From positions 1-16,634 of the forward strand of contig JANXBH010000022.1 of NCBI GenBank assembly GCA_025060695.1: a stretch of 16,634 bases of DNA. Reading direction: 5' to 3'. The translations under genes and the position numbers were made by a program. Numbering within the stretch: position 1 is the first letter of the stretch; every line of letters begins with the position of its first letter. The notes beneath the pieces were generated by a model. That model saw nothing but the letters and a program-made list of their open reading frames with translations, was not told where the DNA came from and searched no databases. The DNA comes from Caldifarciminota bacterium. GTDB lineage: Bacteria; Hydrothermota; Hydrothermia; LBFQ01; DSFT01. Shown here piece after piece: positions 14,603 through 16,634 of the stretch.

Positions 14603-15152
14603 TCCTAATCTCAAAAAGAAGTTTTTACTTAATTTGACAAATTTAATATTGACAATTTAGAAAAATAAATAACTGTTTACCAATAACTTAGACTTTTATA
14701 AAGCTTAAAAATATCATTTTTACGAAAAAATTTTTATTTCATTCAATTTTAAATTGTCATTTTAGGAACATTATTTTTTATTGATTTACAACAATTTAAC
14801 ATAGATAATTCCAACTGCTTAATTAATCACTTTAAAATAAAACTCTATTACTTTGAAGTTTTTCTAATTTGTCAATATTTCTCAATCTCTATTTGCAATC
14901 AACTTTAAATTAAATATCCAATTTAAACAAGAATTTTATCAATAATACCTAATTCGACACGATATTATAAAATAGTTTCTATCTCCATTTGCTGGATGTC
15001 CATTGAAATATGAAACTTTTGTTAAATTTTTAATTTGTATAAATTAAAGCTAATAAAGAATACACCTTAATTAGACCTCTTTCGGGAACCTACTTTCAAA
15101 ATTTAACTAAAAATAAAAAATTAAAACAAAATGTATATCTCTAACTATGACC

Positions 15153-15234
15153 AGTAAATGATTTTATGATTTTTTTAAAGATAAAAATTTTCGGTTTTTT
15201 CTATTTTAGTAAACTATTGATAGTAAATGATTTT
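15153..15234 (+). repeat. 13-bp direct repeat pair in the leader-side region
   Basis: AGTAAATGATTTT occurs at 15153-15165 and again at 15222-15234, 69 bp apart start to start. A shorter relative, TAGTAAACTATTG, lies at 15208-15220. The pair could be a binding site for a leader protein, or chance in AT-rich DNA. Confidence 0.45.
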
Positions 15235-15238
15235 TATT

Positions 15239-15268
15239 TTGAAATTTGACAATTTATAAATATAAAAT
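15239..15268 (+). promoter_or_regulatory. Candidate promoter of the CRISPR precursor transcript
   Basis: TTGAAA (15239-15244) is followed after 16 bp by TATAAAAT (15261-15268), exactly the spacing seen at the tonB promoter. Transcription would start near 15275 and run through about 130 nt of leader into the array, in the direction expected from the repeat. A second TTGACA at 15246 is too close to be the -35. Confidence 0.5.
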
Positions 15269-15389
15269 TCTTCATTTGAGGAGGGTGGGGGGAGATTTCC
15301 GAAAATAGAAGTTGAAAAATTGAAATTTTGTACTTTAAACTTTTAGAACTTAAACATCTTGCTGTATGGATGTTAGTTAAAGGTTAAAG

Positions 15390-15422
15390 GGGACGAAAAA
15401 AGGCACGGGTTTTTATCGTCCC
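15390..15422 (+). repeat. Inverted repeat joining leader end to first CRISPR repeat
   Basis: GGGACGA in the leader (15390-15396) is the exact complement of TCGTCCC in repeat 1 (15416-15422). After one A-A mismatch, four more A:T pairs extend the stem, leaving a loop of about 8-9 nt (GGCACGGG). This leader-proximal hairpin would compete with the repeat's own internal stem. Confidence 0.55.
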
Positions 15423-15609: not shown

Positions 15610-15639
15610 GTTTTTATCGTCCCTATGAGGGATTGAAGC
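15610..15639 (+). repeat. Variant CRISPR repeat (repeat 4)
   Basis: Position 29 of this repeat is G instead of A (ATTGAAGC rather than ATTGAAAC), changing the second-last base of the crRNA 5' handle for the following spacer. The sequence after it reads TTTTAGCGACC. Repeats 1-3, which should be younger, are canonical. Confidence 0.9.
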
Positions 15640-16538
15640 TTTTAGCGACCATAATCACAATTATAACAGCAGGGAGTTTTTATCGTCCCTATGAGGGATT
15701 GAAACTTTCAGAAGAGGAATCAGAGGAATCAGAGTGGAAGCGGAGTTTTTATCGTCCCTATGAGGGATTGAAACAATGCGCTTGGTATTGATTTAGAAAT
15801 AAAAGATGGCAAGTTTTTATCGTCCCTATGAGGGATTGAAACACTGGAAAATAGTTGTAGTTGCGATGATACTCGTTTTTGTTTTTATCGTCCCTATGAG
15901 GGATTGAAACTTTGCGTGGTGCATATATACATTCTTGTTTTTGCAATGTTTTTATCGTCCCTATGAGGGATTGAAACGGGAATGAAAATCATAATTCAAC
16001 AATCCAGAGACCGGTTTTTATCGTCCCTATGAGGGATTGAAACTTGAAATTGTTCCAAAAGTAGCTTCAATAAATAATAGTCATGCGTTTTTATCGTCCC
16101 TATGAGGGATTGAAACTATTTTTGTATTTCAGATCTCTGCCTTTTTATCTCGTGGTTTTTATCGTCCCTATGAGGGATTGAAACTTTCCCGTGCAAAAAT
16201 ATTATTTCCAGAGTTGTTCCTGTTTTTATCGTCCCTATGAGGGATTGAAACATGTATGGCTTCTAAAAAGGAGGAGGTAAGAATATGAGGTTTTTATCGT
16301 CCCTATGAGGGATTGAAACCAAGAAATATTGACAATTCCACAAGAAGAATTTATTGTTTTTATCGTCCCTATGAGGGATTGAAACATATATTTGCAAGCC
16401 CTGAAATATAAAGATGTAAAAGAGTTTTTATCGTCCCTATGAGGGATTGAAACCCGATTCATAGAAATAATTTTCAAGGTGAATAGACATGGTTTTTATC
16501 GTCCCTATGAGGGATTGAAACCGATATGCGTCAACTTT

Positions 16539-16624
16539 GTGATGATCCAATAGCCGTGTTTTTATCGTCCCTATGAGGGATTGAAACTAGTTCCACTTTG
16601 ATTGGACGGCTATTGGATCATCAC
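16539..16624. repeat. 19-bp inverted repeat shared by the last two spacers
   Basis: The 3' end of spacer 17 (16539-16557, gtgatgatccaatagccgt) is the exact reverse complement of the 3' end of spacer 18 (16606-16624, acggctattggatcatcac). The arms are separated by repeat 18 and the first 18 nt of spacer 18. The spacers thus derive from one locus, on opposite strands. Confidence 0.97.
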
Positions 16625-16634
16625 GTTTTTATCG

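What the first reader, a model, noticed from the sequence alone, without database searches (positions are those of the whole stretch)
16522..16624. Adjacent spacers 17 and 18 come from overlapping protospacers on opposite strands
Seen directly: the last 19 nt of spacer 17 are the perfect reverse complement of the last 19 nt of spacer 18. Merged, the two define one 54-nt invader locus. Neighbouring spacers are acquired consecutively, so this records two captures from the same site, facing each other. Known mechanisms that could do this are primed adaptation, where a first spacer directs new uptake nearby on either strand, or repeated capture of a free DNA end or terminus. A functional consequence is also possible: in the precursor RNA the two 19-nt arms can pair around repeat 18, forming a long hairpin that could hide the repeat from processing or create double-stranded RNA. 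The two crRNAs would also be mutually complementary over their 3' halves.
Basis: partly seen in the sequence, partly recalled or inferred. Interest (0 to 1): 0.72.

Follow-up and report, generated by a model that had tools for sequence, protein, structure and literature searches.

The report
Two CRISPR spacers from one site
Two neighbouring entries in this bacterium's CRISPR immune memory were copied from overlapping stretches of the same invader DNA, one from each strand, which is most simply what the known "primed" form of spacer uptake in type I-B systems produces; it is a neat but ordinary record of a repeated encounter.

Summary
Spacer 17 (16522-16557) and spacer 18 (16588-16624) share 19 nt, exact, in opposite orientation, and merge to 54 nt. 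No other pair among the genome's 59 readable spacers shares more than 12 nt; chance for this pair is about 5e-8. The host system is type I-B (Cas8b, Cas7, Cas4, Cas1b, Cas2, Cas3 found). Most likely history: two captures from one invader site (or close variants), spacer 18 first, then spacer 17 by primed or interference-driven uptake. The geometry (3' ends overlapping, PAM sides outward) is the downstream, opposite-strand pattern reported for I-B priming, but one pair cannot exclude two unprimed captures from a small element. The source was not found in viral, phage, plasmid or genome collections, so PAMs are untested. Concealment of repeat 18 by a hairpin is contradicted in silico: the 19-bp helix forms, but repeat 18 keeps its own stem-loop, at about the highest predicted probability of any repeat. 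The contig ends 10 nt into the next repeat, so nothing to the right can be read. A relative's array also holds overlapping spacers from opposite strands; this is ordinary biology.

The parts
14629..15408 (+). leader-side region of the array, AT-rich, repeated in part at two other contig ends of the genome
   Evidence: 77% identical over 760 bp to the end of contig C44, and first ~190 bp 80% identical to the region downstream of cas2 on contig C16
15409..16634 (+). CRISPR array: 18 full repeats GTTTTTATCGTCCCTATGAGGGATTGAAAC plus 10 nt of a 19th, 18 spacers; cut by the contig end
   Evidence: the ATTGAAAC 3' end gives the transcription direction
16492..16521 (+). repeat 17
16522..16557 (+). spacer 17, 36 nt; last 19 nt (16539-16557) complementary to the end of spacer 18
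16558..16587 (+). repeat 18, lying in the loop of the predicted spacer 17/18 hairpin; its own stem-loop is predicted intact
16588..16624 (+). spacer 18, 37 nt; last 19 nt (16606-16624) complementary to the end of spacer 17
16625..16634 (+). first 10 nt of repeat 19, end of contig

Best explanation
Spacers 17 and 18 are two successive records of the same 54-bp site in one invader (or in close variants of it), made by the host's type I-B CRISPR-Cas system. Spacer 18, further from the leader, was taken first. When the invader returned or persisted, crRNA 18 guided the Cas8b/Cas7 complex to its protospacer, Cas3 opened and cut the DNA there, and a fragment covering the PAM-distal half of that protospacer and 17 further bp was captured from the opposite strand as spacer 17 (primed or interference-driven adaptation). 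Shown: the overlap, orientation, array order and presence of the machinery. Inferred: identity of the source, correct PAMs at the outer ends, and that crRNA 18 triggered the second capture.
For: Exact 19-nt opposed overlap, unique among 59 spacers. Type I-B genes: Cas7/Csh2, Cas8b/Csh1, Cas4, Cas1b, Cas2 on contig C16, each above the NCBIfam cut-off; a Cas3 core match above cut-off on C2; no match to the one Cas10 family tried. Published I-B priming in Haloarcula hispanica: 25 of 28 downstream protospacers lie on the target strand, counter to the priming protospacer (PMC3936756); Haloferax volcanii I-B shows the same strand rule, with frequency falling with distance from the target (PMC7521656); type I-F also clusters near the primed site on both strands (PMC4117759). 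Spacers 17 and 18 lie in that downstream, opposite-strand relation, whichever was first. No other exact shared word of 13 nt or more was seen in 257 adjacent spacer pairs from 15 genomes and plasmids, and a relative (G069) holds three spacers stacked on one site on both strands.
Against: One pair only. Under a uniform draw from one element, the chance of at least one such pair among 57 adjacent pairs is 0.19 for 5 kb and 0.025 for 40 kb, so a small element would not need priming. From the Haloarcula counts, the observed geometry is only slightly more probable under priming than under random choice (25/86 against 1/4; my arithmetic). No protospacer, PAM or source was found.
Confidence: 0.62

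Rival explanations
1. Two independent (unprimed) captures that happened to overlap because the source was small or present in many copies, such as a small plasmid or satellite, or because the site is a hotspot of PAMs.
For: With a 3-5 kb source, the chance of at least one such pair among 57 adjacent pairs is 0.29-0.19.
Against: No other overlaps among the 59 spacers of this genome, although a small repeatedly sampled element should give more. I-B adaptation to a virus in Haloarcula strictly required priming (PMC3936756).
Confidence: 0.22
2. Repeated capture from a free DNA end or terminus of the invader, which makes one site a hotspot on both strands.
For: Would also give opposed overlapping spacers.
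Against: No terminus evidence and no source found; in Haloferax I-B, breaks made by a homing endonuclease gave no strong hotspots (PMC7521656). The merged 54 bp is one continuous sequence across the overlap, so no end lies inside the overlap.
Confidence: 0.06
3. The two spacers come from two distant loci or two different elements sharing a 19-bp sequence in inverted orientation.
For: Cannot be excluded without the source.
Against: The shared word reaches exactly to the 3' end of both spacers, as two overlapping protospacers must; a shared repeat would normally end at arbitrary places within them.
Confidence: 0.06
4. Assembly artefact at the contig end.
For: The contig ends 10 nt after spacer 18, and the arrays of this genome are cut by contig ends.
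Against: A fold-back would continue into the complement of the 5' half of spacer 17; instead a normal repeat follows at normal spacing, and 18 nt of spacer 18 are unrelated to spacer 17.
Confidence: 0.03

Closest known systems
Primed adaptation in type I-B systems (Haloarcula hispanica, PMC3936756; Haloferax volcanii self-targeting, PMC7521656)
   Same: type I-B genes; second protospacer downstream of the first, on the opposite strand, very near
   Different: here the two protospacers overlap by 19 bp, only one pair is seen, and neither source nor PAM is known
Primed and interference-driven acquisition in type I-F (Pectobacterium atrosepticum, PMC4117759, PMC5059440)
   Same: new spacers from both strands, clustered at the targeted protospacer
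   Different: different subtype (Cas2-3 fusion) and a different strand distribution around the primed site
Oppositely oriented (flipped) spacers in E. coli type I-E (Shmakov et al. 2014; title seen only in a reference list; content from memory)
   Same: complementary spacers in both orientations
   Different: flipping uses the same protospacer boundaries; here the two are offset by 17-18 nt, so they are two distinct captures

Membership tests
Type I-B CRISPR-Cas system | Cas8b/Csh1 and Cas7/Csh2 effector genes | tested here: met
   TIGR02591 and TIGR02590 above cut-off on contig C16
Type I-B CRISPR-Cas system | Cas3 helicase-nuclease | tested here: met
   cas3_core TIGR01587 over cut-off at C2:1135-2181; HD domain not checked
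Type I-B CRISPR-Cas system | Cas1b, Cas2, Cas4 adaptation genes | tested here: met
   TIGR03641, TIGR01573, TIGR00372 above cut-off
Type I-B CRISPR-Cas system | Cas5b and Cas6b genes | not tested
   contig C16 ends next to cas7; no search made
Type I-B CRISPR-Cas system | array repeat ending in ATTGAAAC (5' handle) | tested here: met
   repeat sequence; motif described in PMC8482600
Primed / interference-driven adaptation | second protospacer close to the first | tested here: met
   19-bp overlap, on the assumption of one source
Primed / interference-driven adaptation | I-B strand rule: downstream protospacers on the strand opposite to the priming one | tested here: met
   3' ends overlap, 5' ends outward; a single pair, weak discrimination
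Primed / interference-driven adaptation | functional PAM at the 5' side of both protospacers | tested here: inconclusive
   no source sequence found
Primed / interference-driven adaptation | dependence of the new capture on Cas3, effector and pre-existing spacer | not testable with these tools
   needs experiment
Flipped spacer pair | both spacers have the same protospacer boundaries | tested here: not met
   boundaries offset by 17 and 18 nt

The most novel reading that the evidence does not exclude
The 19-bp helix between spacers 17 and 18 in the precursor RNA alters crRNA maturation at this position, by presenting repeat 18 to Cas6 better than other repeats or by leaving a duplex of two crRNAs, so that acquisition of opposed overlapping spacers has a regulatory side effect.
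Probability: 0.06. Interest if true: 0.4.

Novelty: new member of a known kind. Interest (0 to 1): 0.2.

Why it matters
It is a readable trace, in a little-studied bacterium, of two captures from one invader site in a type I-B system, and so a natural example of behaviour mostly known from a few laboratory strains. Collected over many I-B arrays, such opposed overlapping pairs could measure how local primed uptake is in nature. Alone it changes nothing.

Tried and rejected
Source search: the exact 19-mer, both spacer 5' halves, and degenerate patterns of the two frames open through the 54 bp found nothing in 2.9 million viral contigs, nor did parts of spacers 1 and 16. Blastn of the 54-mer in phages and plasmids gave only partial matches at E 0.3 or worse, and the whole array in phages one match at E 0.4. 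In 84,980 genomes the 19-mer hits once, in a Pseudomonas MAG, with unrelated flanks, as expected by chance. In 147 genomes of the phylum the two 2-mismatch hits lie in frames that look like ClpP, with unrelated flanks, and are no more than the reversed-pattern control gives. The open frame SSTLIGRLLDHHKVDAY recalls a P-loop GTPase, but lacks the P-loop lysine at the expected place and found no relative; not used. The first repeat pattern across the phylum had one N too many and found nothing; the corrected one worked. Repeat concealment by the hairpin: rejected on the folding result.

Full report
The window is the whole of contig C14 of a 1.5-Mb genome in 77 contigs. Its right end is a CRISPR array from 15409: 18 complete 30-nt repeats, one of them with one substitution (15610), and 10 nt of a nineteenth before the contig ends at 16634. 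The last 19 nt of spacer 17 (16539-16557) and of spacer 18 (16606-16624) are exact reverse complements. Merged, they give a 54-nt sequence. The 5' ends of the two spacers point outward, so in a type I system the PAM side of each protospacer would lie outside the overlap (inference from the repeat orientation).

It is not chance. The three readable arrays of the genome (C2, C4, C14) hold 59 spacers. The longest word shared by any other pair, on either strand, is 12 nt. At the base composition of the spacers a 19-nt opposed match has an expectation of 4.5e-8 for this pair and 8e-5 for all pairs. The 19-mer occurs nowhere else in the genome with up to three mismatches, so there is no self-target in the assembled part. 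A fold-back artefact would read on into the complement of the 5' half of spacer 17; instead a normal repeat starts at normal spacing. A misjoin at a repeat could in principle have made the two neighbours, but it could not have made them overlap.

The machinery is type I-B. Contig C16 encodes Cas7/Csh2, Cas8b/Csh1, Cas4, Cas1b and Cas2, each above its NCBIfam cut-off. A Cas3 core match above cut-off lies on C2. The one Cas10 family tried gave no match, which is not a full exclusion of type III. The repeat ends in ATTGAAAC, the 5' handle motif shared by many type I and III repeats (PMC8482600). The array is therefore read left to right, its leader is on the left, and spacer 18 is older than spacer 17 (inference from leader-end insertion, established for CRISPR arrays in general). 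A 760-bp leader-side block is repeated at 77% identity at the end of C44, and its start at 80% behind cas2 at the end of C16, which supports the leader assignment and may explain why the assembly breaks at these arrays.

The best explanation is primed or interference-driven uptake. In Haloarcula hispanica I-B, 25 of 28 protospacers downstream of the priming one lie on its target strand, counter to its orientation (PMC3936756). In Haloferax volcanii I-B the same strand rule holds, and uptake falls with distance from the target (PMC7521656). Spacers 17 and 18 stand in that relation, and because the arrangement is symmetric the argument does not depend on which came first. The strength should not be overstated. 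From the Haloarcula counts this arrangement is expected in 25 of 86 cases, against one in four at random, so geometry alone hardly discriminates (my arithmetic). Closeness is the better evidence, and its weight depends on the unknown size of the source: with uniform capture from one element the chance of at least one such pair among 57 adjacent pairs is 0.29 for 3 kb, 0.19 for 5 kb, 0.025 for 40 kb and 0.01 for 100 kb. I therefore give primed or interference-driven uptake 0.62 and unprimed repeated capture 0.22.

How rare is it? Arrays of this genome, of relatives in the phylum and of three cyanobacterial plasmids gave 257 adjacent pairs; none shared an exact word of 13 nt or more (the pair 17/18 itself was not counted there, because spacer 18 has no complete closing repeat). 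Non-adjacent overlaps do exist. In G069, spacers 15 and 24 tile one site on the same strand and spacer 10 covers part of it on the opposite strand, with a few mismatches, and two further spacers are diverged versions of each other. Overlapping and opposed spacers are thus uncommon but not peculiar to this array.

The RNA question. In the folded 1.25-kb array transcript the two arms pair with probability about 0.99 or more over most of their length at 37 C, and nearly as well at 65 C. Repeat 18 sits in the loop and forms its own stem, its central pairs with probability 0.98, the highest among the 18 repeats (next 0.93); most others are far lower because they pair elsewhere. The fold therefore speaks against concealment of the repeat. 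It is a thermodynamic prediction without proteins or co-transcriptional folding. Once cut, the two crRNAs would carry complementary spacer ends, but bound in their complexes they need not meet; no effect is shown.

The source was not found. Exact and codon-degenerate patterns in viral contigs, blastn in phages and plasmids, an exact scan of 84,980 genomes and a 2-mismatch scan of 147 genomes of the phylum gave only chance hits. Hence the PAM, the identity of the invader, and whether the 54 bp are really contiguous in it remain open. Contiguity is nevertheless strongly suggested, because the shared word runs exactly to the end of both spacers.

Verdict: confirmed observation, ordinary mechanism, mildly interesting.

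Noticed in passing
14629-15386; contigs C44:99315-100034 and C16:4817-5008 (loci L045, L041): A long leader-side block, about 760 bp, is shared at 77% identity between two arrays and begins again behind cas2; the two other copies run into contig ends, so the genome has at least three arrays with related long leaders.
   Followed up: partly
L013 (C77) 2536-2941: A lone canonical repeat forms the 3' end of a DNA-methyltransferase-like frame (1474-2562); about 280 bp later come degenerate repeats (2844, 2912). The stretch between holds the start of a glutamyl-tRNA-synthetase-like frame (MKRVKTRFAPSPTGQIH). It looks like the remnant of a collapsed array.
   Followed up: partly
L051 (G069) array, spacers 10, 15, 24 and 1, 21: Three spacers stack on one invader site, two on one strand and one on the other, with a few mismatches; two other spacers are diverged versions of each other, as if variants of one invader were recorded repeatedly.
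   Followed up: partly
L052 (G090) spacers 2 and 5; L071 (G025) spacers 1 and 4: A duplicated spacer three positions apart, and a near-duplicate (one mismatch in 37) three positions apart, in two relatives.
   Followed up: no
15610-15639: Repeat 4 carries an A to G change at its next-to-last base (GAAGC for GAAAC), in the crRNA handle; every other full repeat of this array is identical.
   Followed up: no
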